Assembly (NCBI GenBank): GCA_019055375.1
Contig: JAHQIW010006078.1
Span: 62,001 to 126,000 of the forward strand
Source of the DNA: Parelaphostrongylus tenuis
Lineage: Eukaryota; Nematoda; Chromadorea; Rhabditida; Metastrongylidae
Length of the DNA: 64,000 bases
Direction: 5' to 3'
The notes under the pieces are model-generated. The model was not told the origin of the DNA and made no database searches. It saw nothing but the letters and a program-made list of their open reading frames with translations. This document shows, one piece after another, positions 1,745 through 61,118 of the stretch (position 1 is the first letter of the stretch; the number at the start of each line of letters is the position of its first letter). A program made the translations under genes and the position numbers.

Positions 1745-4700
1745 GCTGCACGAGAAGCTCTCTCAAGTGATCATCTTCACCATCGCCACCACCACGATCA
1801 TGGATCGAGTGGTGGTGGATGTCCACATGCTCACACAAATGGTAAACCGGTGGACATCAGGCATGACTCATAAGCTTCCTCTTGTTTACATGATTTATGA
1901 AATCGTTTTTTCCCCAAGTTTTTGAGCAGTTTGGTCAACTTTCTCTTGTTTTTTGTATTTAATCCTTCCGGGACGGCTGCTCATCGTTCTCCGCAAACGA
2001 CATGTGATTTTCGTTATTCTAGAAATGTTTTTCCTTCGTTTCGGAGAAAAGGAACTTTAGATTTTTGAATAACCCTATGGTCCTCAGTTTTCTCTGCACG
2101 CTCATATGCTTTTTTGTATATATAACCTTTATGTGGGAGGAAAACTTTCCAAAGCTAAAGCGTGATTTTACTTTCGCTCCTATAGCGCATCCACAGACCG
2201 TAGCCGTGTAAGCAGCGCACTCCAAATGTGAAACGTAGTATCATTCTCATTGTTACAGTGAATTCAGAAAGCCTTTTAAGAGATCGAGCACAATGTTGGA
2301 ATCGGCGAAATCTAAGCTTTTAAATGAATGTTAAATTTACTGTAAAAAAGTTCCTTCCAGCAAAAAAGACCTCTGCAAAGTTGAAGGTCGAAAACGACTT
2401 TCACAGTTGGAAAGTATCAGAGTGGGGGCTGGATAGTTTCGTTGTAGTGGGAAACTTCCAAATTATTTTTTCAACGAGATCTAACTAGAATTTAGTCCTG
2501 TTCACGTAGTTATCGCGCGATATCTTGAGTTATTTGCAGCACAAGATCTCGCTCTCACTTGTGGACGTACGCTATCGGTGCCACATTGCTTATTAGTACC
2601 GTACCGTTCTTCCTTCTTATTTTCATACCTATCCAGGTGATTATTTTCTTTTCTTCTTTGAGTTGACAGTTTATCCTTTTCTTACGTTCCTTACTATTAG
2701 GTCTTCCGTAAGTTTTGTCACTCGAACAATAAACACCAAATTTATTTACGAGAAGTAGTTAGAGCTGCGTGATTTTGGTATCATGCAGCTGCGCATTTTC
2801 TTGCGGACATTATGGTTTGCAACCTGCTTATACTTGCTTTCGAATGAAGCTATTTTGGGAACACATTCACTTGCTATTTATACAGGAATGGCGGCTAGAG
2901 GCAAATGCTAACGAAGCCGCGCGCAATATTAAGGAAGCTTAAGGCGATGATACTGTTGCAGAAAAGACGACTAGGAAGGGGTTCGCGTAGTTCAGAGCTG
3001 AAGAGAACAGTCTACAGGATCGGTCGCGCTTCGGCCGTCCGCAGAAAGCTCCGTTAATATTACGATCTACTTCACTAGAATTTCCCCTACGCGCCATCTG
3101 TGCATGAGTAGCAAACAAGTTCATTTCCAAGACAGCTCTACCCTAAATCAGTTGTTGCCAAGTTGTATATCAAGATGTTCAGAAGAATATGTACCTTTGA
3201 ACGATACCAAAATCATACAGTTTTGATAACTTATGTTTATTAAATTTTGTGGTCATTGCTTTAATGGTGAAACTTATGGAATGACTAGATACATGGCTGA
3301 ATCTGTTCCTCTTTCAGAACAACTCTCCATCAAACGAGCCATGGTTAAAGGTTTTGCTTGCTTTCGGGTCTGGTGGTCTACTAGGCGACGCTTTCTTACA
3401 CTTGATACCCCATGCCACACCATCTTCATCCCATTCGCATTCTCATTCGGCTTTACACCACACCGAACACACTCATGAACCACATGATATGAGCGTTGGT
3501 GCATGGGTACTAGCAGGTGAGGTGGCTGTTATGTTTCTTTTTCGGGATATTTGGGAGACGTATTTTGACGCGGATTGTTTGTGCAGATAGGGGGTGAGAC
3601 GCGGGTTCGACTCCCGCCCGAGGCACAAAGTTTCACATAAGGGACAAAACCTCGTGGCTTCGGTCAATCTGTAAGGGATGCGCCATCTTTTCGATCTCAT
3701 AAAACGTCGATTAGAAGTGAATGAAGGCATGTCTATCTTCTAGAATGGCTCGTGGTGGCCAGACAAGTCTGGTACCAAATCAGCAACCCCCGAGAAGTGA
3801 AAGGATTGGTGAGTTCAAGCGCGGGATCGATGTGAAGTTTTACCTAGCACTCGGCATTATTGAATTTATAGTTATAACATAATATCACTGCTCAATTAAA
3901 TAAGGAAGTCTTAGCGTCTTTCAATCATTTGAATAGTCTAATTTATGCAGGTATTACGACGTTCCTGTTAGTTGAGAAAGTGGTAAGAATCATTCGAGGA
4001 GAAGCCGGTCACTCTCATTCTCACTCTCATTCCCATAGCACCGCCTCAAAAAAAAAGGTGGGTTAGTTCATTTACTTGACTTGCTTCAATTTTGAGAAAG
4101 ATACTACGTTTCATGAAGCTCTTAAAAGGCCCTTAGTGCTGACCATTCTCTGAGGAATACGCCGTGCATTCAGCTCCATTCGTACTGTCTTATAGGTGAT
4201 TTAATGCCTATCTGGCCGTTACAATGACGTGCTGTGGGCCTATCGATTTATTAAGTCAGTGCCACTATCCCCTAGAGAAGCTTGTAACCGATTCGCTGAC
4301 CGCGGAAGGATTGAAAACTTGGTGAGCCTTGGGCAGGCGGTCGGACCATCGACCCCGTTCCAACCACTACGGCACACGTCCCCTTCACTACGGTGCATAT
4401 CATTAAGTATTTTTGTGTCAATTTTTTGTTTCATTGACATCAAGGTTGAGCATCTTTTATCGTTGATCAGTTCTGTTCCTTCTACGACGAGACTGATAAG
4501 TATTCTGCAACTGCTTTCTGAACATCATGCGTTGGTCAATGATTTATCCTTTTCGTCAAAGGCGCGTGTGGCGCAGTAATTAGGGGTGCTCTACAGTACA
4601 CGAAAGGTCGATCGATCAATCATCAATGATTCATTTCCGCTTACGCCTAAGGCTCATCAAGCCTTTTGTTTCTCGTCGGCGAATTGTTATCGACTTGTCT

Positions 4701-11200: not shown

Positions 11201-14200
11201 TTCTTTTGTATGGTCCACCTGGAACTGGTAAAACATCGGCAGTGGTAGCGTTTTGCCGTCAACTTTTTCCCGTCCGTAAGACATTATCCGACCGGGTTCT
11301 TGAATTGAATGCCTCTGATGAGCGAGGAATACAAGTGGTACGAACGAGAGTAAGTTGTCTGTCTTCAAAATCTTTCTAAGTAATTCGGTATGAAGCGTAT
11401 ATAGCGCAGCGGTCAGATGTACTTTGCAACACGCATGTGGTCGATCATTGGACCCCGCTCTCGATGCTCACCTTCTAATTCTCTGGGTCGGCGAAGTGGT
11501 GCCAAAATTATCTGGAAGGATAGATGGCACTGATTTGTTCCATCGCTAGGCCACTGCTAGTCATATGATGGCCAGATATGCCTTAAATGACCTCGAGCTA
11601 TCCTAGATGACTACGAATACATGGCGCATCTTTCAGTGATTGATCATCGTCGAGAGCTTTAAGCGTTATTGTCCGGTTCCTACTCGAGGATTCGTCTCTT
11701 CTTAACTCTAGTAGTAAGCTGCTCGAGACGGCTCTTCATACAATTTGGAGATAGCCGGGCTATGGCATTCTTAGGCGTTCAGTTGATTGATTGCAAGAGA
11801 GTGTTGAGAAGAGGGGATCGACCAGCGCCTTGCTGATCGCTTTTGCTTCCTGAGCACACTACTAACCTTTGCGCTTCTTCGTCTGAACAAGATCACTGTG
11901 TTTTACGGTCATTGTTAGCATTTTAGATAAAGGAATTCGCTCATCGTGCCGTCCCACGAGGTGGTGTACCGTTCAAGATTGTTGTACTCGATGAGGTCGA
12001 TGCAATGACTGGTGCTGCACAAGCGGCATTACGGAGAATCATGGAGAAATATTCCAAAACTACAAGGTATGCATTTTTCAAGTCTTCATTTTTCACTTTA
12101 GACCGAGATATACATTTTTTCCCTTGCTCATTCAGATTCTTCTTTATCTGCAATTATATCTCTCGAATAATTGATCCGCTCACTTCTCGTTGTGCGAAAT
12201 TTCGCTTCAAGCCAATTCCACTGGAGTCTCAGAAGGAAAGGTTAATATTTTTTGTTATTTAGAAAATTGTATTGTTTGATAGATAAAGTGTTCTGGGTAT
12301 GATTCTATCATTGGAACCCATTTTTGACCTTTCAAGGACAAGATCTTCGCTCTTTTCTCAGACTTTTGGTAGTTATTCGATAGTTTGAACAACGCCCGTT
12401 TCAACACCATATTCTTTTTTTTTTCTGAAAACTTTTCTTAGAGCACTGTAACAATGGAAACAAACCAAGCGTTACCTCATTTTTCAGCTATTTTGAGGCT
12501 CTGCTCAAAACTATGTAATCTGATAACGTATCTAGCTTTTCATGAGGTTTGCTATGGCATTTATATGGTGCAAATTACGTGTTCCGACCCTTGAGCCTCA
12601 TTACTTGCACGGTGCCTTTTTTCAGCCAATGTCTTATAGGGGAGACGGAAACTCCTCACATATGAGGGAATCGACGGCGAAGAACTTGTACTGCTGTAAA
12701 GTGAGAATACCATCCGTCGTGCAGTGTTGCATAGTTGATTGCTTGTGGCTGGTAAAACTTATCATGTTGTTTTGAGTGGGGGTCTGAGAAACAGTAGGTA
12801 AGAAAGGTATTACATGATAAGTTTAGCCAGACACGAGTAAACTCAACAACAGTGCACGACGGATGGTCTTTTCATCTTACGACAGTGTGAGTTGTTCGTC
12901 GTTGGTTTCTTTGTGTGGGCCTCCGCTAAAATGGATTGCCTGAAACTAAAGACACCGTGCAACTGATGAGGCTGTAAGGCCGAAATATGTGTCTTGCACC
13001 ATATTAGTGCCATGACAGACCTCTTGAATAGCTCAAGCAGTTATCAAATAACGAGATTACAATTTGCAAGCGACGAGCATTTTTTGCTCGCTGAGGGTTT
13101 GTGGACGGCTTTTTATCAGACTTTCAACGGTTATTTGGTGGCATAATTTTGATGAATCTGAGAAAGTCTTTTTTTTTCTTGAAGATGTCTGCATAGATTG
13201 GAAGGGCGAAAAGAAGTTTACGTTATGCACTCAAAAGTTTAGGCGTAGGCTTCATAGCGCGTTTATTCAGCAGTATAAATGGAAATAAATGGCTAATATC
13301 TATAAAACGATAGAACGAGTTTTTCCTACAATCTTAATGTGGAAAACCTAGCGTTTTCTACAACTTGGGAAAAGGTTTTCAAATAAATAAAGGAAATCCC
13401 GTCCTCTTGAGGCGACTTTGAGATTACTATGTGCGGCACGCTATTTGAGAGACCGCGATAATGCGCATTAAAGATCAAACGTAATCTTATTTTTGCTGCT
13501 ACAGAACGCTAACAGAGACCTTCAAAAAACAAGCACACTTTTAAAATCAGTAAGATTCGTGCTATCGAATAACTATTGAATGTCTGAGGAAAAGCGCGAA
13601 ACACCCTCGTCATTATAAGATTGAAAATTGGGTCAGGGTAACGCGATAACAGGTCGTCTAAAAAATCCGTGCAGTTTTTTAGTTTTTCAAAATGATTTTT
13701 GCCCTACTTTTTCCTAAGAAGAGGCAAAACTGGTAATCAAAGTGTTCTTCATCGACCTCGATAGCTTCCTTCGGTACTTGTCCATTATAAGGCGACAAAT
13801 GAATACTCGATCACATTCGTTAGAGAAGTATTTTTCTTAGGAATTGTAACAATTATGCGAAAGCTTAAATCTCTGGCTAGAGCACTACGTGGATGGTTTT
13901 TCATAGGACCCTTTTATAACGCTATTTTTTCAAAATAAAACTATACTTCACACGACCACGCGTTTTTTTTTCTTATCTCGCTTACATTTTGCTGGACAAA
14001 ACTCTCAGACTGCTAGTAATTTTTTGATAGCGGTGTAGAAAAAAGAAAACATGTGTTCTACCCATCGCCAGACCTATCTCTTTCTTTGGACTATTGGTAA
14101 TCATTCTATAGCATAGGATTTAAGGATTCTAAAGCCATGCTTATTTCCTGGAAAGATCGTTCCTCTGCAGTGAGCAGGGAAAATTAGATTGATTCACATA

Positions 14201-17200
14201 CGCGATCATGTGCTCTTTGACCAATTGCGGGCCGTGGGGTTGGGCGACAAGGGTGGGTGACACGATCGTCGATCGATTTCATAGCATGAAAGTGCGATGT
14301 TTGTTATTTAATTGGGATTTGCTTCTTCGCTTTGAAAGAAACTCTATAATTGAACGTATGACTCTAATACTACGATATTTTCTCGCCACGTTCTTGTGCT
14401 TCGTGCTTTCAGCGAAGTAACAGTTGAATTGCGCAGCCGATGTGGAATATTATTTGGTTTTGAATTTACAGCGTTATAAAAGGGTCTTTCAAAAAGACCG
14501 GACACGTAGGATTTTAGTCAGAGATTTAAGCTTTCGAATGATTACTGACACTCCTATGAAAGGTTCTTGTCTAGCGAATGGGGTCGAATATTCATTTGTC
14601 GCCTTGTAATGAACAAGAACTCTTCCTGCTAAATTTCGAGTACGAGATCAACAATGAATAAACAGTCGCTTTTTTGGTTGCATTTGGCATGTCATTGGAG
14701 GATTATCTTCGACCATCTCAAAAACAGCTTGACAATCATCTTCCAGTGGACAGCCCGAGCGTGACTTTTCCTCCAGATTGTTCTCTTCAGCTCTGGTACT
14801 TAGCGAACCACTTCCTAGTCGTCCCTCCTGTAGCCGTATGATCGCCCCAAGCTCCGCTAATTTTCCGTTGCGTTACTAGCATTTTCCTCCACGCTTTATT
14901 CGTACATGAATAGCAAGCGAATCTGTTTCCAAGACAGCCTCATCCTAGAACAGGCATAGGTAAGTTCTAAGCCAAAATGTTCGCAAAAAATGCGCAATTG
15001 AGCGATACCAAAATGATGCAATTTCAATTGCAAAAGTCACATTAAAAAACCAAGACGACACGAATGTTTTACACAACCTTCAATACCGTCTTTCTTCCTC
15101 TTGGTAGTTGTTCATGACTTTATATACTCAGAGTTTTAACGCCATGACATTTATATAAAAGCCAACTCTATTTTCCGTCCTCAACATTCAGACTGCTCTA
15201 CATATGCAAGAATGAGGGTCTAAACATCAGCGATGATTCCTTATCAATGCTGATAATGTTTTGTGAAGGAGATCTTCGTCGATCTATCAACTATCTGCAA
15301 TCGCTTGCTTTCCGTCAGACTATCACAGCTGACTATATACTCAGTGCAACTGGTCAAGTACTTGAACGAGACGTGAGTTTATCTTGTTATCTCTGACACT
15401 ATATAAGAACATTAAACTTTTTTGGACGGCGACATAATCGATATCGCGCGCGGTACGCGATTTTCGTCATTTGATAAAGGTTTCTCTCAGTATCGTGATA
15501 AACTCAAAGTTTCTTGTATTATTCTGATACTGCACAATTTTCCCTACACGCTCATGTAGTTTTTTGTACATGTTTACCTTCAATGTAAGAAGAACTCCGA
15601 CTGTGAAATGTAATTTTATTTTTCACTCGTATATTGGGCTATGAAAATTTTTTTATAATCAGACTTTAGTTCTGAATCGTCGAAATCTGTGCTGTCGAAT
15701 GAGTATGGTCTAATGCAAACCCATCCTCAAACCCTGCCGTGCAGACAAAGCACTCCGAGCGTGAAATTTAATTTTATATTCGTTGCTACAACGCACTGAG
15801 AGCACCTTTTTGAAACTAAGCATAGCGTTGAAATTACCGAGACTCAAGCTTACGAACAATTTCATAGTTTTAGTAGAAAGGCTCCGTCCAGCGGAAAAGA
15901 CCTTTGGAAAGTTTAGGTCGAAAGTGGCCCTCACCGTCCGCAAAGCATTTATCTGAATTCACTCTTATATCAAGCATATCAGTATGAATAGTTTTTCCTG
16001 GAAAGCAAGTTTCTTGTCTTTTGAGTTGCTCGTAGATCATTTTTATTTCAGATCGCCGAGCTTATCCGTGCATGTCTATCGTCGGATACAAACAGACTTA
16101 CAGAAGCTGTTGATTACATCTACCGCTCCGGATATGCTGGACGACTTGTGATTGATCGACTTTTCGATGAGCTGCTTGACAATGATTTTCTAACTGAATT
16201 AGACAAGAGTGCTATTTTTGATAAAATGGCGGTATGTCCTTTTTTCACAGATCTTTTTTTTTTAGCAAAATTAATCAAATTCGTTATCATTTAAGCGTCC
16301 GTCAATCTTTCATTTCAGAAGTGATCAAATAATCCAATAACAATGGTTGGGAAACTATCACTTTTGTAAAAATTTGAAAAAAAACAATTGTTGAGAATAT
16401 CTAATTCACATTCATGCTGTTGCGAGTTACTTCAAACCATATGATAAGGGAAGAAAGAGGAAGGGGTTGGCCTGTGTATTTGATCTCTTTCTGATTCTCT
16501 TCTCGACGTTTCAGGCGAGGGAATTTACATTGTCGAGGCCTTGAATTGTACAAAAAACGGCCAGGTATTGAGCTAATCCCACGCAAGCACGTAGGCTCCG
16601 TAGACTACTAACTAGAAACGACAAGAGTTTATTCAACCGCTATTTCACCAGTGATATGATGTCATAAATACACGTCCAGTAATGTGGAGTCATATTGAAA
16701 TTTTTGAATCTTGGGTGGGAGTTGAACCCGCCTCTCTTGCTATGCGGGCGTACCTGCTAGCCATTGCACTGCTCGGATCTTGTTACGCTCTTAATCTTTT
16801 TGCGATACAAGGTATCGATTTTATCAGCAACCAACCATCAACGGTTTGTTAGTCTTGTCATTTTTTTTCAAACTATGAGTATTTGGAACAATTGTGGATT
16901 CTCAATTCTCGCTTTTCTCAAATAAATCGATTCTACAGTCGAAAAGCTTCACACTATGGTGTGCACCCATTTTACTCATTATTGAGTTTATTTAAGACGA
17001 AAATATTTATTGAATTGGTTTAAGATAGTGTTTATCTGTCGTTTGCACCACCTATCGTCCACTTGCTCGTCGAGTGATTCGAACGGGCACCCAGTAAAAC
17101 TTCCTTCATAGAATGAGATTCGTGGCTGCCTGGAGATTCTGCATCGCTGACTTTTCATTTTTCTTTTTTGCAAGATGTGTCGTCGGCGATCGAAAAAACA

Positions 17201-20200
17201 TGGAGGAAGTTTAGGACGTTAAAAGACAGTGAAAAGAGCAGTATGAATGTAAACACTGGGCAAATCATGCTAAACAGGCTAGCATTATTGCAGTCGTTGC
17301 AGGAAACACTAGACAGACTTTCACTCTGCGTCATGAGGTTCTTAACAAACGATTCAAGATTTGTCTGAATGTTCGCTCTTTTACAAGATTAAAGGGATAA
17401 AACGATCGGAGTTGATTAATCCCAAAGAGAAGTGCCATGCATTGGACTTCATCAATCATGGTTAGAAGTGTCTGAATGTATTCGTCTGGCCTATACATGC
17501 AGTGGTCTACTGATGTACCAAGTTTATGCCGCTATTCTCCTAGAATAGTTCAATACCAATTTTTCGACTCCGAAGGGTATAAGGCTTGGTGGGCTTTGGG
17601 GTGGGGATCGCATCTTTGACGACGTGTACGTCACAAAACACCCCTAACCACTGCTCCATACACGCTCGATAACCACATACATAGCATTGAAAAACATCTT
17701 AACTCCGACGACATTTGCTCATGTTTCGATATTTGCAGTTCCCGTGCTTGTTGTGGAATTTTTAAAGGCAAATTTTGCTTTAATTTTTGATGACCTCAAG
17801 ATTTGAACGGATCTAAAATGGAAGAAACATATCAAAGAAATTGTGCACCCAAAACAATAGGGTTTAACCTCTTTTCTAAGGCTATGTCGAGTGTTATCGG
17901 TTAAGGACATATCAAAGTCGTAAGGTTTATTCCTCGGGTTTTATTAGACATTCAGTAGCTTCTCAATCTCAAATCGGAGCAATTCAACTATTCCCATCCA
18001 GAAGCAGAAATCGACGATCTTTTTATTTCCAAGATTTTTTATGGTTTTACTGCTTTCTAGTAGTATTGTGACTTTTCAGAAGAACCTAAAAAAATTGTGT
18101 AGTAAGCAAAATTCTACCTCAACGGGGCTTGAACCCGCGTTTGATCCATACTCCCGACGCGTGCTACCACTGCACCACAGATGCCAGCGCTTGCTTATTT
18201 TGCTTACCGCTCAGTTCTCTAAGGTATATTTTGAAACATCGTAACATTGCGAAAAGCAGTAAAAACATAAAAATCTGGGAATTATATCAGTATAATGGCT
18301 GTCGGCTGAAATGGGTTTATAGAGCGATACTGGTTACCCGACCACATCTGTTAATGGTTGGTGGCTGATAGCTGTTACAGAAAGATAGTGAAGAATGAGT
18401 GGTGACTAAGCGATGGGCCTCGGTGGTTTAGTGGTAGCACGTGTCCCTGGTATGGATGAAGCGTGGGTTCAACTCCCATGTTAGATCGAGTTTTTGCTCA
18501 CCACTCAGTTTTCTTGGGATCTTCCTTTTTTCAGTAGTTATCTCTTCATATATGAGCTCATGTGGCGCAGTGGTTAGAGGCGCTCTGCGTCGCACACGAG
18601 GTCAATGGTTCGATCTCGCGCTCATGGCTCATCAAGCCATCCATCCCTCCGGGGTCCGTAAAGTGGTCCCAGGCAGGTCTCAGACTTGTCTGGGAGGATG
18701 ACCAGCACTGACTCGGTTCAGCGGGAGGCCTCCGCGCAGTCATTGTAAAGGCCAGATATGCATTCAATTACCTCAAACGAACTTAAGAAATGAAAAAAGA
18801 ATGCATGGAGCATCTCTTAGGGATTGATCAACGCCGAGAGCCTTATCTTCTATCTTTATCTCTTCATATTACCAATTCCTCCGTTGTCTATATTCACCTC
18901 TTTCCATTTGCTACTAAACTCCAAATTTCCTTCCTTTCCTTCTTTATTTGATCCTTATCACTTTTTTTTTTTACTGTGCGGATCCCACTACCTCTAGCGT
19001 TCAATACCCCATTCATCTTCTTCTTGAACGTCGTAGAATAGTGGTTAAGCGCGTTTCTTTGCAATCGTCAAGGTAGCCTGGCCATAAAGTTCCATAGGGT
19101 GGTCGCTGTTGATCGCCCGAGTGTTGGGAGATGGGGATCAGCCCTGCGCTGAAACGAGTATCACAACCACTCGGCCACCCTCTCTCCTCTCCATTCTCCT
19201 TTCCCCCATTCAACATTAGCGGTAAAGAATCCATGAAAACTCTCTATTATCTATCAGTTTCTTCATAAAAGTAGTTTGAACGCATAATACATCTGAACCC
19301 TCCGTTTCCTCTTCCTCTTGCTCTCCTCCTTATGCTGGTTCCGCATTCATAATGTTCGTTTTCTGCAGCTTCAGATTTACGAAAGAGGAGCACAAAAGGC
19401 TATTCATTATTTTCAATAAATAGTATCCTCGTGTTCAACAGTCCATCGTATATGAAGTCCAGTTCGTTTTGGCCGGCATGATTCAATCATTTGTATGCCA
19501 GATCCTGACCAATATTAGATTATGCTTCGTTTCACTTTCGCCGTGGGCTTTTAGTTATTTTATGGTAAGGTGGATATAAAAAGTACATGGAAAGCCTAAA
19601 CTAATTCATACTCAATGTTTTGCGAGGAGCGCATGTGGCGCAGTGGTTAGAGGTGCTCTGCGTCGCACGCGAGGCCAATGGTTCTATCTCGCGCTCATGG
19701 CTCACCAAGCAATCCATCCCTCCGGGGTCGGTAAATTGGTACCAGACAGGTCTCAGACTTGTTTGGGAGGATAAGCAGCACTGACTCGGTTCAGCGGGAG
19801 GTCACCGCGAGTCATTGCAAAGGCCAGATGTGCATTCAATCACCTCAAACGAAGTTAAAAATTGAAGTCGAATGCATGGCGCATCCCTCAGGGATTGATC
19901 AACACCGAGAACTTTATCTTTATCTTTAGCTTTTACGTTTTGTGAAACCGACCACCTTCGGCTGAAAGCAACATGTACCATTGGAGTCATATACTAGCTT
20001 GTTTAGTGAGATGTATGGGTTTGGTGACGTTCCTTAAACATGGAATAATACATAGACTACGTAGATTTACAGAGAATGAAGAGTGCAGAAAACCGCTAGC
20101 TAAGCGAACATCAATGCGAATCTCGGAGCTGAAAATGCAGCAAAAATGGCGGGCTTGAACTTATGGGGAATAGCATCGCTACTCTACCAAGTTGACTTCA

Positions 20201-21802: not shown

Positions 21803-33236
<11,434 letters not shown>

Positions 33237-33461
33237 CTTAATGTTAGAAAATATAAAGGGGAAAAATGAGCAATTCAACGAACATTTCTCGAAAAAAAAA
33301 CACATAACTGAAACAGAGAGAGGGAGAGGTCAGAAGATAAAAGTATTGGAAGACAATAATTCTGTACACTTAACATATCAACTGGTAAGCTGATAATCAA
33401 AATGCGATATAATAAGACAACATATTTTACGCCTTTAAAGAGGTCTAATGTGGCACCTCTA

Positions 33462-33508
33462 GTGCTAAACGTGTGTCGGCTTACCCTAGTAAGCCTCATC
33501 AGTAGCAC
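33462..33508 (-). ncRNA. Hammerhead ribozyme, one core change (A14 to C)
   Basis: Minus strand: helix I GUGCUA/UAGCAC; core CUGAUGA (complement of 33496-33502); a perfect 7-bp helix II GGCUUAC/GUAAGCC with a 4-base loop; then GACA where GAAA is expected; short helix III; cleavage base U. Relative to the 12.9 kb copy, helix I has changed by a compensating pair (CAA/UUG to CUA/UAG). The A14 change should strongly reduce or abolish cleavage. Confidence 0.72.
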
Positions 33509-33588
33509 GTGCCCTTCGGTTCAGTCAATCCCCAACATATAAGGAAACCAACACAGAACATAATTAGGGTGACTGGACGGAAAAGCAC

Positions 33589-33637
33589 GTGCTACTGACG
33601 GGGCTTGCTAGAATAAGCTGAAACGTATGCCTAGCAC
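33589..33637 (+). ncRNA. Hammerhead ribozyme, mutated core (A9 to G)
   Basis: Helix I GUGCUA (33589-33594) with UAGCAC (33632-33637); core CUGACGG; helix II GGCUU/AAGCU; GAAA at 33620-33623; short helix III with a mismatch next to the core. It mirrors the minus-strand copy in the other arm. Probably inactive. Confidence 0.65.
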
Positions 33638-33906
33638 TGGACCTGCCATCACAGACCTCATAAAAGCCTTAAAACATGCTATCAGATCATATCACTTATA
33701 GCAAATTCTAAAAGAGTCGATAGGAAAGATACCAAAATGTACGAAACGCCATGCAAAGAAGGGCACAATCAAATTAGAATTCAGAATTCATAAAACCTCA
33801 GAAAAAAATTGACTAAAATGTGACTATGAATGCGCGAGATGATATAACGAATAGAACAATGATAGGACCGAATTTAGTTTTCAATAGGAAATTATCAGCA
33901 GAAATC

Positions 33907-38196: not shown

Positions 38197-38485
38197 ATAA
38201 AGGTCTTGGCGTCGATCAATCCCTGGGGGATGCGCCGTGTATTCGTCTTCAAAATTAACTTTGTTTGAGGTGACTGAATGAACATTTGAAATTTGAAATG
38301 ACTTGCGGGCCTCCTGCTGTAATGAGTCAGGGCTGCTTATCCACCCAAACAAGTCCACCACCATTGTGGTACCATTTACCGACCCCGGAGGGATGGATGC
38401 TTGGTGAGCCATGAGCGCAAAATCGAATAATGGACCTTATGTGCGACGCAGAGCACCTCTAACCACTGCGCCACATGCGCTCCTG
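38194..38485 (-). repeat. SINE-1 inserted in a microsatellite
   Basis: Tail GGATAAAGGTCTTGGCG at the left, head GAGCGCATGTGGCGCAGTGG at the right. Microsatellite lies on both sides. Confidence 0.85.
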
Positions 38486-38517
38486 CATATACATACATGT
38501 ATGCATACCTATATGTA

Positions 38518-38555
<38 letters not shown>

Positions 38556-38562
38556 TATATGT
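38486..38562. repeat. TATATG microsatellite
   Basis: Continuation of the TA/TATG repeat interrupted by SINE-1. Confidence 0.85.
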
Positions 38563-38565
38563 ATG

Positions 38566-39312
38566 TGGAAAGATCGGTCTTCAACTGAATCTAACGAAAA
38601 CAATGTTCATGAGGAACGGATGGGTTTCTAATGCCCCATTAACGCTCAACGGAACGACAATTTCCAAATGCTCCAGTTACATCTATCTAGGTCGTGAAAT
38701 CAACATGATGAACGACCTAGCCCCAGAGTTGAGCAGGAGGAAACGAGCGGCTTGGGGAACGTTTAAGAGCATCGAAGATGTAGTGAAGAGGACAAAGAAC
38801 ATCCGACTCCGTGCCCACCTTTTCGACTCGACAATTATCCCTGCCCTAACGTATGCAGCAGAAACCTGGTCGCTACGTAAGCAGGATGAAAGATCACTTG
38901 CCGTTATCGAACGCGCAGTCGAAAGGTCGATGCTAGGAGTATCTCGTATTTCGCAAATGAGACAAAGGATCCGAACTTCCGACCTACGTCAACGATCGGA
39001 AATCAGAGACGCCGCCCTACACGCCAGGATATCGAAAATAAGGTGGGCCGGACGCGTGATGCGCTTCAACGACAACCGATGGACGAGAGCCGTTACCGAC
39101 TGGATTCCTCGGGACGTCAAGCGCTCTAAAGGAAGACCACTGACCCGTTGGTCCGATTTCTTCACGAAAGCAATGGAAGAAAGATATGATGCTCAGCGAA
39201 TTCCTAGAGCAAGAAGGACCCACTGGGCTTCTCTTGCACGCGATAGGGAAAAAATGGAAGAGTTGCTGGTACCTGCTCGAGTCACTCGACGATCAACGGG
39301 ACGACAGGTGAT
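38566..39312 (+). mobile_element. RTE-type LINE, 5'-truncated, C-terminal coding part
   Basis: An open frame encodes the part of an RTE-clade polyprotein after the reverse-transcriptase catalytic site: KIGLQLNLTKT, YLGREINMMNDL, TYAAETWSLRKQDERSL, RISKIRWAGRVMR, DWIPRDVKRSKGRP and RWSDFFTKAMEERYDAQ. The catalytic YADD region and the N-terminal endonuclease are missing. The coding part ends near the family 3' signal GGGACGACAGGTGAT. The open frame, despite truncation, suggests a fairly recent insertion. Confidence 0.88.
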
Positions 39313-39535
39313 ATATAAACATATCTGCACACTTAGATGCACATGTATATACGCGCATATACACAGCCTTGTGTGTATGTGCGCATACACATGTATATAT
39401 GTTTCTGCATATGTATACATGTTCACATGAACGCCACATTTCCACATGTACATGTATGAATGTGTATACATATATATGCCCGTATATACAGATGTACACG
39501 TTCATATGCAAACACGTGTACATGTCCATGTAGCG
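39313..39535. repeat. ACATGTATATACGC-type microsatellite
   Basis: Irregular ACATGTATAT/GCATATAC units directly after the LINE. Confidence 0.8.
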
Positions 39536-39649: not shown

Positions 39650-40048
39650 AGGGCCCTATTATAGAAGCCGTTGCAGCTCATAGGAATATTATAGACCATC
39701 TGAAGGATCACGACGATGGTTTATAAATAGTGCGTAAACTCCTAGCATGGATCACCTCAACGGCACAGATAGCGTAGCAAAAGCTCAGATTTATGCCTGA
39801 CTCACCACACTACTGCAAAAGATCTTGCAGATCATAGGAAAATCAATCATGATACAACTTTTATTTACTGCATTATAATAATGGGTCCACAGATAGTGCA
39901 GAATTCGAAGCATACGACCGTTTCAACGGCGATTAGTCGATTAGTTAACAAAAACTCATTCAGTCGCAATATACCGTCCTTGTGTAAAGGCATAGATCAT
40001 GGGCAAATCTATCATGATACGTGTTTTATTTACAAGATCATAACGATG
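39650..40048 (+). repeat. Diverged copies of an older satellite unit (about 155-165 bp)
   Basis: Anchor phrases like GCTCATAGG/GATCATAGG/GATCATGGG occur at 39676, 39830 and 39995, with shared text ATCATGATAC and TTTTATTTAC. They look like old units from which the 110-bp array was derived. Confidence 0.6.
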
Positions 40049-41684
40049 GGTCGAGAAATTGTGGGGAATTCTGAGCACGAGAACACTTGAACGGCGCTCA
40101 GGTAGCATACCAAAACCTTCGATTCATTCGCGATCTACCGATCTACCGCAGGAGTTCGGGTCGACAAATTGTGGGGAACTCCGAGCATGAGAACACTTGA
40201 ACGGCGCTCAGGTAGCATACCAAAACCTTGAAATCATTCGCGATCTACCGATCTACCGCAGGAGTTCGGGTCGACAAATTGTGGGGAACTCCGAGCATGA
40301 GAACACTTGAACGGCGCTCAGGTAGCATACCAAAACCTTCGATTCATTCGCGATCTACCGATCTACCGCAGAGTTCGGGTCGACAAATTGTGGGGAACTC
40401 TGAGCATGAGAACACTTGAACGGCGCTCAGGTAGCATACCAAAACCTTCGATTCATTCGCGATCTACCGATCTACCGCAAGAGTTCGGGTCGACAAATTG
40501 TGGGAATTCTGAGCACGAGAACACTTGAACGGCGCTCAGGTAGCATACCAAAACCTTGAATCATTCGCGATCTACCGATCTACCGCAGGAGTTCGGGTCG
40601 ACAAATTGTGGGGAACTCCGAGCATGAGAACACTTGAACGGCGCACAGGTAGCATACCAAAACCTTCGATTCATTCGCGATCTACCGATCTACCGCAGAG
40701 TTCGGGTCGACAAATTGTGGGGAACTCCGAGCATGAGAACACTTGAACGGCGCTCAGGTAGCATACCAAAACCTTCGATCATTCGCGATCTACCGATCTA
40801 CCGCAAGAGTTCGGGTCGACAAATTGTGGGGAACTCCGAGCATGAGAACACTTGAACGGCGCTCAGGTAGCATACCAAAACCTTGAAATCATTCGCGATC
40901 TACCGATCTACCGCAGGAGTTCGGGTCGACAAATTGTGGGGAACTCCGAGCATGAGAACACTTGAACGGCGCACAGGTAGCATACGAAAACCTTCGATTC
41001 ATTCGCGATCTACCGATCTACCGCAAGAGTTCGGGTCGACAAATTGTGGGGAACTCCGAGCATGAGAACACTTGAACGGCGCTCAGGTAGCATACCAAAA
41101 CCTTCGATTCATTCGCGATCTACCGATCTACCGCAGGAGTTCGGGTCGACAAATTGTGGGGAACTCCGAGCATGAGAACACTTGAACGGCGCTCAGGTAG
41201 CATACCAAAACCTTCGATTCATTCGCGATCTACCGATCTACCGCAAGAGTTCGGGTCGACAAATTGTGGGGACTCCGAGCATGAGAACACTTGAACGGCG
41301 CTCAGGTAGCATACCAAAACCTTCGATTCATTCGCGATCTACCGATCTACCGCAGGAGTTCGGGTCGACAAATTGTGGGGAATTCTGAGCACGAGAACAC
41401 TTGAACGGCGCTCAGGTAGCATACCAAAACCTTCGATTCATTCGCGATCTACCGATCTACCGCAGGAGTTCGGGTCGACAAATTGTGGGGAACTCCGAGC
41501 ATGAGAACACTTGAACGGCGCTCAGGTAGCATACCAAAACCTTCGATTCATTCGCGATCTACCGATCTACCGCAAGAGTTCGGGTCGACAAATTGTGGGG
41601 AACTCCGAGCATGAGAACACTTGAACGGCGCTCAGGTAGCATACCAAAACCTTCGATTCATTCGCGATCTACCGATCTACCGCA
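40049..41684 (+). repeat. Satellite array, about 15 units of 109-110 bp
   Basis: The phrase GAACACTTGAACGGCGCTCA recurs at 40081, 40191, 40301, 40410, 40519, 40628, 40737, 40846, 40956, 41066, 41176, 41285, 41395, 41505 and 41615. Units are nearly identical, with a few shared variants (AATTCTGAGCACGA versus AACTCCGAGCATGA, and CAGGAG versus CAAGAG). The unit is not a multiple of three, so the short frames through it have no coding meaning. Too long and spacer-free to be a CRISPR array. Confidence 0.95.
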
Positions 41685-42000
41685 GAAGCTCTTTTGAAGC
41701 AAGCAGAAATCGTCACAGGACGTCTACTATTTTGAAGACTATGCCAAGTGGCGTCCACAAATAGTGGAAAACGCTAAAGCACGAGACCACCTCAACGACG
41801 ACTAGCCAACATAAGAAAAGCTCGAAGCATGCGTGATCTACCGGTCTACTGTAATGAATCCTATAGATCATAAGAAAGAAGATCATACCAAGTGTTTTAT
41901 TTGCAAAAGATCTCAACGATTGACCTACAGATAAAGGGAAAATCCTAGACACGAACCACCTCACGACGACAAGCTAACTTAGCAAAACGATGTATGCGAA
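41685..42000 (+). repeat. Diverged older satellite copies, right flank
   Basis: Text such as CGAGACCACCTCAACGACGA, GTGATCTACCGGTCTACTG and GATCATAAG echoes the array unit with many changes. Confidence 0.55.
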
Positions 42001-42715: not shown

Positions 42716-43480
42716 CAACCCTAAGAAGAATTTTCACTTATCTCTCTATCGTTGTCAGAATATGCTGGTAGTTTTATGAAGATGATCAGAGGAGGAATCG
42801 ATGTGGCGAAACAAAGTCGGTTGAGGTGCCGAGTAATCGTAGCAATTGCTCCAATCATGATAGATCGGAGTTACAAGACAGCCACCTCGCCTTAATCCAC
42901 AGTAAGCGCAAAAATTCCGTATCTCATGACCTTCACGAGGATAAAAACTTTGCTCTTAGGATTTTCCTGGTGTACAAAAAAATAAATTTGCAGGTTACAA
43001 GAGCCAAAATTCGAAGTGAAATTTACAGTCTCGTATCCGCTGGCTTCCATCACAAACCTTTTGTGGGGAGACACTACCGACAAGAAACGAAGGGCTTATC
43101 CTAGCTTTTCATTACAGTACTAAAGATTTCTGAAGTTTAAAAACCATCTAGAGACTCCTGTATTTGGGAAGCTTCATGGATGTCAGTCTGCTGCTGGACG
43201 ATCCTTCTGAGACTGCAAACGACGTGTAACTTGTGGCGTTCTGCTGTCAGATCAGAAAAATCAAGAAGAGTGGAGTGCAACAGTACTGAGAGAAGCTGAT
43301 GAGATTTTACTTTTTTCTATTGTACACGACCTGTCGTCACATTTTTTTTTTGGTGGATACCCGCACAGGCCTATGTCATCAAGGGGTTAGCAGGAATTTG
43401 ATATCCATTGTTGAGAAACTATCGAGTGATTCTGAAAGGCTTTACTTTCGACCGCTTATATAGACCTCGCTCAGAAACAA
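42716..43480. other. No gene recognised
   Basis: No supported gene, RNA or repeat. Confidence 0.45.
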
Positions 43481-43484
43481 CAGT

Positions 43485-43960
43485 AATCTCATAATCTGAT
43501 GACATTTTTTGAGCCCTTCATGAGGTCCACTATCGCATTACACAGGGCCAACCGTCTGTTTTGCCTTCAAAGAAGTCAGGATGTTCGTTTTCTTTCGTTT
43601 CAGCCGATTCTATGTGAAGCATGTACCTCATTAAGGAATCCACGCCGAATTACTCAGATCACCGCTGGTCGAGTGACAAAATCCCCCGGCATTGCAGTGA
43701 CCACATTCAAGCGCTTATGGCTGGTAGAATAGCTCATACCTTTACTTTCGACTGCTCATATAGACCTGGTTCAACATTAATTACATCTGATAATCTGATA
43801 ACACGCTTGAACCTTATATCAGGTCTGATATGCTACTAATGAGTCTGTAAAGGCGAAACAGCTGAATAGTACTGCATCAGTGCCACAACTGACCTCATAA
43901 AAGGCTCCAAAGATGTTAAGAGATTGTCAGGTTATTATTGATTTGAAAAATTCTAAGGAG
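43485..43960. mobile_element. Palindromic hammerhead-bearing element (family A, copy 3)
   Basis: The left end (GATGACATTTTTTGAGCCC, TTCATGAGGTCCAC) is mirrored by the right end (CTGACCTCATAAAAGGCTCC, AAAGATGTTAAG). A hammerhead fold lies in the right arm; the left-arm equivalent (about 43525-43575) is too decayed to call. The interior is longer than in copies 1 and 2. Confidence 0.6.
43830..43872 (+). ncRNA. Hammerhead ribozyme, mutated core (G5 to A)
   Basis: Core CUAAUGA (43836-43842); helix II GUCU/AGGC with a GUAA loop; GAAA 43855-43858; helix I UGCUA (43831-43835) with UAGUA (43867-43871), including one G-U pair. Invariant G5 is A and the first helix III pair is A-A, so it should be inactive. 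Confidence 0.65.
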
Positions 43961-45009: not shown

Positions 45010-45330
45010 AACGAGAAGATCGTAACACTAACGAGAGATCCATTCATTACTATTTGAGCCAACCTGTTAGCTCAAATGATAACGAACGGATCTATTGAAT
45101 TTGAGTGTGATCTTAACGAAACACTCGAAATAAAGGTATAATATGATAAAAATACCAGCCAAAGAGCAATCGAGTGCGCAACACTCTGTGTTAGGTAAGA
45201 ATTTAACTTGACATAGAAAGGAAAACGCTCGTCTTCGATGACTCTCTATAAGAAGTGTAAGGTTCCTGAGAAGAACTGACTATAAAAAGATCGAAAGACG
45301 ACGGGTTCTGCCCGACTGATGGCTACAGGG
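45010..45330 (+). repeat. Rearranged copy of palindromic family B
   Basis: It shares the centre of the 50.5 kb element (GTCTTCGATGACT..., AACTGACTATAAAAAGATCG, GACGACGGGTTCTGCCCGAC) and its terminal text (GAAACACTCGAAA), in a different order. After CCCGA it reads CUGAUGG, a remnant hammerhead core, then diverges. Confidence 0.55.
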
Positions 45331-45594
45331 CCAACATGAGCCATCAAAAAAGTGAAGCTTACAAAAGTTGACCGGAAAATAGAAAATCTATTTGCTTTGG
45401 TCTTACAATGGGCCGTCTCTCATAATTGGTCCTCAGTGGCTTACGAGCATTTTCAAGGATGATGGCCTACTAGGCAAACAGCAATGTTTGTTGCTACGAT
45501 TGGAATTACCCTTCATTTACATGTCGAAAACCGCTGTATTCAAATGATTCTGAATTATGTTATTAAATCGTGCTTCAGAAGTCTAATCCGATGC

Positions 45595-50519: not shown

Positions 50520-50912
50520 TGTTTCGTCTCGAGTGTTTTTTTAAGACCACAGCTCAAATTTCAATACGCCAAATAATCATTTTTGAGCCACGCATGTCGT
50601 GCGGTTTATTCAAAAGGGCTGACTCACAGAATTCGATGCATGCGTGATAAACTTCGCTTGACATAGAGTGTTAAACGTTCGTCTTCGATGACTGTCTGTA
50701 AGGGAGCAGAGCTCCCGAGAGAACTGACTATAAAAATATCGAAAGACGACGGGTTCTGCCCGACTAACGAGTGTGTAAGGACGAAACACGTGTATCGGGC
50801 TGTACGAGAGCCCTTACCAGACCGCATGACAAATTGGCTCAAATAATAATGAACGAATCTATTGAAATTTGAGCGTGGTCTTAATAAAACACTCGAAACA
50901 AACGACTAACGA
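50520..50912. mobile_element. Palindromic hammerhead-bearing element (family B)
   Basis: The left end (GTTTCGTCTCGAGTG, TAAGACCACAGCTCAAATTT) is mirrored by the right end (AAATTTGAGCGTGGTCTTAA, AACACTCGAAAC). The right arm carries a hammerhead on the plus strand; the mirrored left arm (about 50590-50680) is a decayed equivalent. Sequence differs from family A except in the ribozyme layout. Partial relatives lie at 45.0 and 51.9 kb. Confidence 0.68.
50758..50800 (+). ncRNA. Hammerhead ribozyme, mutated core (G5 to A)
   Basis: A perfect 6-bp helix I, GCCCGA (50758-50763) with UCGGGC (50795-50800). The core is CUAACGA, helix II has only its two outer pairs (GU/AC), and GAAA is at 50783-50786. 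Helix III is AC/GU around a four-base loop, and the cleavage base is A at 50794. The G5 change and weak helix II predict little or no activity. The fold is shared with family A although the paired bases are different. Confidence 0.68.
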
Positions 50913-57772: not shown

Positions 57773-59401
57773 AATTCACTATGTATTTACTACTAATACT
57801 TGCCGCAAAGTTCAAATAAGGGCTAATCATTTTGAAACAGGGCGCATTTTGTTTCTCTTTGGTATATCGGTCTATGACGACTTTTCTAGACACCAGGACG
57901 AGTTCTAAAATCCCTTATTCCCAAGCTGTCGAATTATTATCAATATCTCAGCGGAGAAGGAGTAAATACCACTCGCTGGTTGTGAGAAGTACAAATCTAA
58001 CGCAACAAAAGTAAATCTTAGCCATTGCTGGTGTATGAGAAAAGGTAGTACGCTGTTGATTGATGTTGATTGCATAAGTTGTTGATTGTTCAATAATTTG
58101 AGTGGAAAATTCACAGCGTCAGTGAGAAGTTTCCAAAATTTAGGCGAAGAAAATGCACTCCCACCGAAGAAGTACTCTATGAGAGTTAAATACGGACTTT
58201 ACCAAGGCTACGACAACATACCAAAACACGCTTTAGAATACGTCACTTTCAAAAGTTTTACAATATCGTCGAAAGAGATGAGGAATAGAGTTAAAAATGC
58301 ATTGTTCTCCCAAAAAAGTAACTTTCGCGCTGAAAAGTAGAATTTTCATGATAATTTTTGAGATAACTGGGAGATCTTTTTGCGACAAATGCGCTTGGAT
58401 AACTCCGCGCAAATACGGGCTTTTTCGTAGCATCAAAGTTACCTTGGAATCACAGTTTTACTTCATATATGCTAACGAAACCTGTTGTTAAATTCAAACA
58501 AGGCTAGTTATATCAAAAACAAAACCTTGACCTTCTTTCGTCAGTACAAACTACTAAAAAAGTTTTTGAAGATAACACGCTTATCATCAAAATCGCATTT
58601 TTCATGTTATCGAACAACCGCAAAAACGTAGATAATATAGAAAGAAAAATGTTCACTAACACTTGAAAATGAGTTTCTTAATGCAAGATTGTTTTTTTCC
58701 CATGGAAACATAAGAAATTTTTTGACACGCGATCGTTCATTTTGGTATAAATAACTTTTTACAATCTTTCTCCGTGATATTCTGATTTTGTAAGTAAAGT
58801 GCTTCTAAGTCATAAACAACTTTTAAGAACCAGTAAACGCGTCACGTTGCTCAAACAATGGGATGACTATATTTCAGGTGCCAAATGAAATCTTCTTCTA
58901 TCCCCTACACCGGTATATGGATACCTTCTCATAGCCAATTTCAGCTTCAGAATAGTTGATACTTGAGCTATCGAAAGAGTACCAAAACTTCAGCGAAAGG
59001 CTTTCCTTAGATCGAAGTCGAGCCTGAAACAAGATGTTATATTCTCTCGTACAACACGATAAGAGGGCTTTCTGAAAAAGCAACTACATTATTCAAATCG
59101 TCGAGATCCGAGTTTCCGAGCAATCGCTAAGAGTTTAACAAAAATAATGTGTTTAGCGAGAAACACCCTCAAGCAACTGTGTACCAGCGCAGGTACACTC
59201 CGTCGCGAACGGGTCAATTAACTCATCATCTTCTGAGAGCGAAAAAATAGTTCCTGAGAGGCAAACTGTTTGAGCTCAGTGAGAACATTGCAAACTCTCC
59301 TTCGACAACAACCCTCCTTTCAATAGTGACGATGTCCTGTAAGAATACCAATCCGTGCAATAAGCATTCAGCTATCATGAGCGTTCAAACGTATAGAAGG
59401 T
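57773..59401 (+). repeat. Left long direct repeat of the Penelope-like element
   Basis: It matches the right copy in order along the whole length, from CTATGTATTTACTACTAATA to GCGTTCAAACGTATAGAA, with scattered changes and short indels. It includes a segment (about 58870-59160) resembling the dispersed DR1 repeat. Divergence between the two copies means the insertion is not recent. Confidence 0.85.
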
Positions 59402-60230
59402 TGTCCTATTTGTCCGGTCCGATACCTTCTCGTAAAAACACATAAACTTACATCTATTGGTGATCTAGTGTCAACCGATCCATCAACATTCAAGGTTAGA
59501 CCTATCATCAGTTGTATAGGCGGACCAACGGATAGAATAACGTGGTTTCTAAACCTCATTTTTACTCAGGTGCTCAAATTCATGCCAACCCATCTACCCA
59601 ATACTAAAATGTTCCGAGATCACCTACGTTGCGCGAAACCAAACAACTCGCACGTAATGGAGTCATTTGGTGTTAGTAAATGACTCTGCAATGCAAGCCA
59701 TTTTCGAACTTTTAACTGAAAATGAACAAAAAGTAAACATGTATGGCTTTACAATTCAACAACTAATGACCCTCCTAAAACAATGTCTTAGTTGTTCAAT
59801 CTTTCGGTGGTCGGGAAAATACTTCACACAACTCAGGGGGTTAGCCATGGGTCAACGCTTAGCACCTAGTCTTGCCATCGCTTTTATGTATAAGGTGGAA
59901 ACTTCAATTCTCGTTCACCGCCCATTGCTCTATTGCCGGTATATAGATGATTGTTTCATTGTCTGTTCCACACAAGAGGAAATGGACAAATGTTTTGAAG
60001 CTTGAACGGACAGTCAGAGCATATCAAATTTATGCGAGAAAGTCCAAACGGGGGCTGGCTTCCATTCTTAAACACCCAAGTAAAGCTTTTGGATAGTGGC
60101 TATAGTACAAAATGGTATCGAAAGCCAAGTAACAAAAACATTTTGGTCAATTACCTTTCCTCTCATCCTTCACACATGAAAAAAATCGCTAATCAAAAAC
60201 ATGTTTCGAACGGCTAAAAGTGTGTGCACA
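59402..60230 (+). pseudogene. Reverse transcriptase of the Penelope-like element, broken
   Basis: Early RT text reads DPSTFKVRPIISCIGGPTD, RITWFLNLIFTQVLKF and MFRDHLR. Then comes AMQAIFELL, the motif-B region LRGLAMGQRLAPSLAIAF, and the catalytic motif C YIDDCFI near 59942, followed by LPFLNTQVKL and WYRKPSNKN. Around 59660 the text jumps from ESFGV to NDSAMQA: motif A, with its catalytic Asp and the LYT stretch, is missing and the frame shifts. Further shifts occur near 60003 and 60217. It cannot make active enzyme. Confidence 0.85.
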
Positions 60231-60364
60231 GGAGAGGAGGAAAGGAACGAATCATTAGACTTGGCACGAAAGATCGCCATTTCCAACGGCTACAAAACAT
60301 TTGCCACTAGGGAATATTCAAAAAGTGGAATTAGGTCACAAAAGAACAATACTCCGCACCTGAA

Positions 60365-60844
60365 TTGAGTCCCCTTCAAATTACCATTTATATCAAACGA
60401 ATTAGTAGCGCGGTTAAAAGGTGCCTAAAAAGATGCGGTCTTGAAAATTCCGTGGTAGTTATCGAAACCCCACCTCTCACCCTACGCCATCAGCTGATCC
60501 GCAGTAGACTCTATGATCGATTGTGCAACACCAACAACTGTATAATGTGCCTCAACGGAAAAGAGGGAGATTGTATGAGATCGGGCACAATTTATTTGCT
60601 AACATGTAAAACATGCGGGGAAGAATATATGGGCGAAACGGGTAGACCACTTTTCATCCGCATAAAAGAACATCTAGGCAGTAAATCTAAAATAGATAAA
60701 ATCAAACCTTTAGGTTTACATAGGGCACAAAAACACAACAACAAGATTTTTGATGTGACTGTCACAATCCTGGTGCAGGAATCAAAGACATCCACGCGCA
60801 AAACTCTTGAGGCATTTTGGATAAACGCCAAAACCCCGAAATGA
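60365..60844 (+). CDS. GIY-YIG endonuclease domain of the Penelope-like element
   Basis: An open frame of about 159 codons. Residues near 60-72 form a Cys cluster (CNTNNCIMC, then C), followed by the GIY-YIG core: GTIYLLTC (about 74-81), EEYMGETGR with the catalytic Arg (about 85-93), and RKTLEAFWI with the catalytic Glu near 149. This domain nicks target DNA in Penelope-like elements. It was originally the C-terminal part of one polyprotein with the RT; frameshifts now separate them. The apparent start is not a true start codon of the family. Confidence 0.85.
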   Translation: MSPLQITIYIKRISSAVKRCLKRCGLENSVVVIETPPLTLRHQLIRSRLYDRLCNTNNCIMCLNGKEGDCMRSGTIYLLTCKTCGEEYMGETGRPLFIRIKEHLGSKSKIDKIKPLGLHRAQKHNNKIFDVTVTILVQESKTSTRKTLEAFWINAKTPK

Positions 60845-60976
60845 ACGGAAGGAAGAATGTGTCACCATCACACGAGATCTCGCGCCCTTTCTTCGTTTTA
60901 TCTTCTAACCTGACTTAGGCAGCATATAAATAAGACCACCCGAATCATTCAAATAGACTAACACTACATACGCCCA

Positions 60977-61011
60977 GGCTCTGAAGAAGGCGGGTCGCCG
61001 AAACGTTAGCC
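60977..61011 (+). ncRNA. Hammerhead-like core after the Penelope ORF
   Basis: Helix I GGCU (60977-60980) with AGCC (61008-61011); core CUGAAGA (60981-60987); an extra A; helix II GGCG/CGCC with a three-base loop; GAAA at 61000-61003; then CGUU, which gives no loop for helix III in a single molecule but could pair in a dimer. Hammerheads are known in Penelope-like elements. The extra A and loopless helix III make activity doubtful. Confidence 0.5.
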
Positions 61012-61118
61012 GAATTTCTACGACTACTTTACCAACCTCGCGCCAGCTAATCAAGATAAGTTTTCTCGATTTTCATATATCATTTGATTATGCCGAGGTT
61101 TATAGAAAGTTGAACTTT

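What the first reader, a model, noticed from the sequence alone, without database searches (positions are those of the whole stretch)
12945..13008. Intact hammerhead ribozyme in the sense strand of rfc-4 intron 5
Every invariant hammerhead core base is present (CUGAUGA, GAAA, A-U closing pair, C before the cut). Helix I is a perfect 6-bp stem extended past an internal loop by ACTAA/TTAGT, and helix II has a GUAA loop. If active, it would cut the rfc-4 pre-mRNA inside its 2.95-kb intron, between 12993 and 12994. That could be neutral, or could affect splicing or release an intronic RNA.
Basis: partly seen in the sequence, partly recalled or inferred. Interest (0 to 1): 0.86.

Follow-up and report, generated by a model that had tools for sequence, protein, structure and literature searches.

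The report
Hammerhead ribozyme in fold-back mobile element
The self-cutting RNA motif seen in a worm gene's intron looks real, but it is the one copy with an intact core in a decayed mobile-element family that carries such motifs in mirror-image pairs, and it is probably folded away and of no consequence for the gene.

Summary
A complete type I hammerhead core lies at 12957-12999 (+) in a verified 2951-nt intron of an rfc-4-like gene; chance expectation is about 0.003 per 64 kb. No Rfam hammerhead model reaches its gathering score. Related elements lie near 33.5, 43.7 and 50.7 kb, with a truncated one near 45.2 kb. Across six copies helices I and II covary (96.7% of 60 cells paired). Only the rfc-4 copy has a full core; neutral decay predicts about one in six. 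Helix III is a short palindrome, as in dimer-acting hammerheads. The left arm would sequester the ribozyme in the transcript (36 kcal/mol penalty), so cleavage of rfc-4 pre-mRNA is unlikely. Best reading: fossil of a retrozyme- or Penelope-like non-autonomous family, probably in a strongylid nematode, with head-to-head hammerheads as an unusual arrangement. Activity, genome-wide copy number and mobility are untested.

The parts
12515..13052 (+). Element A: 538-bp fold-back (inverted repeat) in the rfc-4 intron, outward-facing hammerheads in both arms
   Evidence: arms align at 67% over 561 columns with gaps, 74% ungapped for the outer 105 nt; predicted RNA fold is a rod, -263.8 kcal/mol
12957..12999 (+). 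A_R: hammerhead with complete core (the finding); predicted cut between 12993 and 12994
   Evidence: 0 of 12 core positions departed
12945..13008 (+). A_R with the ACTAA/TTAGT outer extension of helix I
12553..12620 (-). A_L: decayed hammerhead in the left arm, opposite strand
   Evidence: 4 of 12 core positions departed
33389..33712 (.). Element B: fold-back with B_1 (33449-33518, -) and B_2 (33579-33650, +), both core-defective
   Evidence: self-inverted 33406-33693, 68%
43440..43958 (.). Element C: C_R (43820-43887, +) core-defective; C_L (43483-43692, -) very degraded; an extra tail copy 43785-43840 (-)
50523..50902 (.). Element D: D_R (50748-50815, +), one core departure; inverted tail copies 50523-50566 / 50860-50902
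   Evidence: weak Rfam Hammerhead_1 match, 20.9 bits, E 0.013
45036..45317 (+). Element E: D-like, hammerhead broken off after the first core segment; tail copy lies upstream of the flank copy (direct tandem order)
   Evidence: 45207-45317 is 85% to 50657-50765 and 45067-45134 is 86% to 50834-50902; sequence read
12241..15191 (+). Intron of the rfc-4-like gene that holds element A
   Evidence: splice sites read; flanking exons match RFC subunits

Best explanation
The motif is the best-preserved copy seen here of a type I hammerhead carried by an old, dispersed, non-autonomous mobile-element family, probably in a strongylid nematode. SHOWN: four related loci plus a truncated one in 64 kb; each of the four (A-D) has inverted units with the hammerheads or their tails facing outward; two loci (C, E) also keep a direct tandem order; helices I and II covary; five of the six readable hammerheads have core lesions. 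INFERRED: living ancestors were transcribed and self-cleaved, probably as dimers through the palindromic helix III, giving unit-length RNA that was reverse transcribed in trans, as proposed for animal retrozymes and Penelope-like elements; inverted dimers arose during integration or became the element's standard form. In the present intron the element is an inert fossil: the nascent left arm anneals to the ribozyme and blocks folding, so rfc-4 splicing is probably unaffected.
For: Family copies. Covariation: 96.7% of 60 cells paired against 18.6-43.1% when slid; 7 two-sided changes; covariation score 0.533 against at most 0.133 slid; 0 of 500 shuffles reach the score or the percentage, 8 of 500 reach the number of pairs with a two-sided change. 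Palindromic helix III: of the five full-length 8-mers checked (B_1 left out for its deletion), A_R and D_R make 4 of 4 self-pairs, B_2 and C_R 3 of 4, A_L 2 of 4. Sequestration: penalty for the hammerhead helices 36.3 kcal/mol once the left arm is included, 0.8 to 8.5 without it, depending on length. Decay: 0.96 intact copies expected of six, 1 seen. Most classical animal type I hammerheads lie in retrozymes, minimal ones in PLEs (passages of PMC7229834, abstract start; PMC7761336); amphibian and PLE forms with weak helix III act, or may act, as dimers.
Against: No element ends, target-site duplications or partner enzyme were established. The one Penelope-like element seen in the window (57775-62770) shows no hammerhead of this family or of Rfam; one relaxed-scan hit in it at 58544 (-) is at chance level. 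Direct tandem order rests on two degraded loci. Only six arms enter the covariation count, two pairs of which share a locus, and the shuffle control does not correct for relatedness. Adding helix III lowers the paired share to 91.0% of 78 cells. Most invertebrate retrozyme hammerheads are said to have a stable helix III and to cleave as monomers (PMC7761336), unlike these. Copy number in the genome is unknown because the genome search did not complete. Folding energies ignore hammerhead tertiary contacts and co-transcriptional kinetics.
Confidence: 0.66

Rival explanations
1. A fold-back (MITE-like) DNA transposon family, unrelated to retrozymes, captured a hammerhead; it moves as DNA and the ribozyme is a passenger or trims transcripts.
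For: Inverted, outward-facing architecture at four loci; fold-backs without a hammerhead are also present in the window, 28400-28985 and 26190-26590.
Against: Hammerhead helices covary across copies, so RNA folding was maintained; two loci keep direct tandem order; no target-site duplication was seen by eye around element A.
Confidence: 0.2
2. The intronic ribozyme has been kept for a host function: it cuts rfc-4 pre-mRNA and changes splicing or releases an intronic RNA.
For: Of six readable copies only this one has a complete core; sense orientation in a real intron. Intronic hammerheads in amniotes are conserved and cleave in vitro (passages of PMC3088659; PMC6155905).
Against: About one intact copy is expected by neutral decay; the left arm sequesters the motif in predicted folds. 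No orthologous intron could be compared.
Confidence: 0.05
3. Chance match to hammerhead core words with no ribozyme history.
For: No Rfam hammerhead hit at gathering level; the core words alone and a one-mismatch descriptor are near chance level.
Against: Strict motif 0.0027 per 64 kb; six related copies with compensatory changes.
Confidence: 0.02

Closest known systems
Metazoan non-LTR retrozymes with type I hammerheads (PMC7229834 and PMC7761336, passages read)
   Same: Type I hammerhead, repeat unit of a few hundred bp, dispersed non-coding copies; weak or palindromic helix III as in the amphibian forms.
   Different: Units here are inverted at four loci; most invertebrate retrozyme hammerheads are said to have a stable helix III; circular RNA is untested; the word stem 'nematod' does not occur in the main text of either paper.
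Hammerheads in Penelope-like elements and Terminons (described in PMC7761336, PMC6155905 and PMC11167929, passages read; the original 2014 and 2017 papers were not held)
   Same: Short helix III, possible dimer action; a PLE is present in the same window.
   Different: Four of six copies fold with a helix I extension beyond a bulge or internal loop, whereas minimal PLE forms are said to lack helix III or tertiary contacts; no RT is attached; the PLE in the window shows no hammerhead.
Rfam RF00163 Hammerhead_1
   Same: Same core and type I layout; copy D_R matches model positions 1-45 of 45.
   Different: Below the gathering score (20.9 against 34 bits); for A_R the best clan member was HH9, 17.7 bits against 52.
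Intronic hammerheads of amniotes (RECK, C10orf118; PMC3088659, passages read)
   Same: Hammerhead in an intron, thought to derive from a repeat.
   Different: Conservation could not be tested here; embedded in a fold-back that sequesters it in predicted folds.

Membership tests
Hammerhead ribozyme, type I | Complete catalytic core with three helices in type I order | tested here: met
   12 of 12 core positions in A_R; helices read
Hammerhead ribozyme, type I | Covariation of helices among relatives | tested here: met
   six copies; helices I and II only, helix III weak
Hammerhead ribozyme, type I | Covariance-model score above Rfam gathering threshold | tested here: not met
Hammerhead ribozyme, type I | Self-cleavage after C17 | not testable with these tools
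   needs an in vitro assay
Metazoan retrozyme | Dispersed small non-coding units with type I hammerhead | tested here: met
   within this window only
Metazoan retrozyme | Direct tandem repeats bounded by target-site duplications | tested here: inconclusive
   direct order only in C and E; inverted in A-D; no duplication recognised by eye for A, other loci not examined for it
Metazoan retrozyme | Circular RNA in transcriptome | not testable with these tools
   no RNA data
Penelope-like element pLTR | Same hammerhead unit in the repeats of an RT/GIY-YIG element | tested here: not met
   the one PLE recognised in the window (57775-62770) has no matching hammerhead; other PLEs of the genome not searched
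Fold-back / MITE DNA transposon | Long inverted repeats with defined ends and target-site duplication | tested here: inconclusive
   long inverted repeats yes; ends and duplication not resolved

The most novel reading that the evidence does not exclude
The head-to-head fold-back is the element's native form: each strand is transcribed into a rod-like RNA bearing a hammerhead of that polarity, so intact copies elsewhere in the genome produce and self-process RNAs of both polarities, like a genome-integrated animal relative of viroid-like circular RNAs with paired ribozymes.
Probability: 0.07. Interest if true: 0.82.

Novelty: new variant of a known kind. Interest (0 to 1): 0.45.

Why it matters
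If the host is a strongylid nematode, as the RT hits suggest, this adds that group to the animals with hammerhead-bearing mobile elements: in eight library searches on hammerheads (five of them capped lists) I saw no title or abstract start that reports natural hammerheads in nematodes. It also shows an unusual inverted, two-strand arrangement, and it is a caution that an intact ribozyme motif in an intron can be a sequestered fossil. The decayed relatives supply a covariance model with which a whole nematode genome could be searched for active copies.

Tried and rejected
Host-function reading: rejected as leading account. Chance: rejected, although the core words alone and a one-mismatch descriptor are near chance level. 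Link to the window's PLE: searched, not found.

Own errors corrected: model R1 and the first pair count used helix columns shifted by one (that count gave 81.7% of cells paired); replaced. The outer helix was misplaced and corrected. Rows left out of the alignment: C_L (too degraded) and E (truncated). The six sequences behind R2 match it by construction, so its E-values are not independent evidence; beyond them one search lists only weak hits, the best being the broken E unit (45300-45345, E 0.82). In the estimate the two-base deletion of B_1 counts as two departures and A_R itself is included. Pairwise alignments of whole elements were mostly too noisy to use.

Literature: nine library searches, the first eight on hammerheads. 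Listings were complete for (4; 8; 2) and capped for (20 of 34; 15 of 3,387; 15 of 156; 15 of 1,368; 15 of 44). Searches were too broad to be informative. PMC12711028 is about engineered ribozymes in a nematode. PMC7229834, PMC7761336, PMC11167929, PMC6155905 and PMC3088659 were seen as passages only. Four papers were not held.

Viral contigs (pattern of the family core): 16 loci; by eye, 11 of 16 have the same ATCAAA/TTTGAT helix I around the core. They share the helix II/GUAA module; no other similarity was tested, so they are not treated as relatives.

Full report
What is there. The window holds an rfc-4-like gene: exon segments read, joined at consensus splice sites, match replication factor C small subunits (best E 3.3e-43 to an RFC small subunit, 1.2e-40 to RFC subunit 4, the best eukaryotic one). 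The intron runs 12241-15191, 2951 nt; its number in the gene was not checked. Within it, on the sense strand, lies a full type I hammerhead core, 12957-12999. The strict descriptor occurs 4 times in 96 Mb of first-order random sequence, so one hit in 64 kb is unlikely by chance. The bare core words and a descriptor with one mismatch allowed (4 found, 1.5 expected) are near chance level.

Organism. A 270-residue piece of an RT fragment (38561-39370) is 95% identical, over 88% of the query, to a Parelaphostrongylus tenuis protein; of 624 hits 120 are listed, and the named ones I saw are strongylid nematodes except one annotated from a shrew. I infer a metastrongyloid nematode, P. tenuis or close; the RT is a mobile element, so this is indirect.

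The motif is in the right arm of a 538-bp inverted repeat, 12515-13052. The left arm holds the mirror copy on the minus strand, with four core lesions. Searches with the arms found further units at 33.4-33.7 kb (two, inverted), 43.4-44.0 kb (inverted, with an extra tail), 50.5-50.9 kb (one hammerhead, inverted tails) and a truncated one at 45.0-45.3 kb. In A to D the hammerheads or tails face outward. In C and E a tail precedes the next unit's flank on the same strand, i.e. direct tandem order.

Was it a ribozyme? On the six readable copies (A_R, A_L, B_1, B_2, C_R, D_R; C_L and E left out; alignment) helices I and II pair in 96.7% of 60 cells, with 7 two-sided changes and 10 further pair types; slid structures pair in 18.6-43.1%. 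Against shuffles, 0 of 500 reach the covariation score and 8 of 500 the number of pairs with a two-sided change; relatedness is not corrected for. Helix I shows GTGCAA/TTGCAC, GTGCTA/TAGCAC, TGCTA/TAGTA and GCCCGA/TCGGGC. Helix III has no real loop: it is a palindrome such as ACACGTGT (D_R) or, with wobbles, ATATGTGT (A_R), the form expected of hammerheads that act as dimers; of five full 8-mers, two pair fully with themselves. Adding helix III lowers the paired share to 91.0% of 78 cells. Folded with helix I forced, A_R, B_1, C_R and D_R (4 of 6) extend helix I beyond a bulge or internal loop; B_2 makes only scattered outer pairs and A_L none. D_R gives a weak Rfam type I match (20.9 bits, E 0.013 in 351 bases). 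At gathering level the window has one Rfam hit, a tRNA model.

Is this copy active? Unknown. Alone, the 68-mer prefers another fold by 8.0 kcal/mol (nearest-neighbour energies; tertiary contacts ignored); trimmed to 12951-13002 the penalty is 0.8. With the left arm present, 38 of 44 ribozyme bases pair with it and the penalty is 36.3 kcal/mol. The left arm is transcribed first, so in pre-mRNA capture is likely (inference). Core departures across six copies average 1.83, so about one intact copy is expected without selection; one is seen. Host function therefore has no positive support here.

What it works like and what it is. It works like the type I hammerheads of animal retrozymes and Penelope-like elements (passages). 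Membership in either is unproven: the PLE of the window has no hammerhead, ends and target-site duplications are unresolved, no RNA data exist here, and most invertebrate retrozyme hammerheads are said to have a stable helix III. The inverted arrangement is the feature I did not find described: the word 'inverted' does not occur in the main text of PMC7229834, PMC6155905 or PMC3088659; in PMC11167929 the one use is a chemical block, and in PMC7761336 it is in the title of a cited paper.

Noticed in passing
57775-62770: Penelope-like element: RT (RVT_1) and a GIY-YIG piece just under the Pfam cut-off, at 59381-60844, between 86%-identical direct repeats of about 1.6 kb.
   Followed up: partly
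40048-41691: Minisatellite-like array with a period near 110 bp, offsets 95-98% identical.
   Followed up: no
28400-28985 and 26190-26590: Other fold-back elements without a hammerhead by the family model; relatives of the first at 2710-3281 and 13-576.
   Followed up: partly
A_L, C_R, D_R (12553-12620, 43820-43887, 50748-50815): The same core lesion (G5 to A) in three of six hammerheads; shared ancestry, mutation bias or an alternative core are not distinguished.
   Followed up: no
50729-50736 and 45281-45288: A TATAAAAA stretch about 30 nt upstream of the hammerhead in D and E could place a transcription start at the ribozyme's 5' end (read by eye).
   Followed up: no
L001-L016 (IMG/VR): The helix II/GUAA core module of this family also occurs in viral contigs, in 11 of 16 inside one shared hammerhead form.
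   Followed up: partly
38408-39430: RT fragment whose hit list includes a protein annotated from the shrew Sorex fumeus among strongylid nematodes: contamination or horizontal transfer.
   Followed up: no
18424-18479: tRNA-like sequence just above the Rfam cutoff (29.1 against 29 bits), not called by ARAGORN; possibly a tRNA-derived repeat.
   Followed up: no
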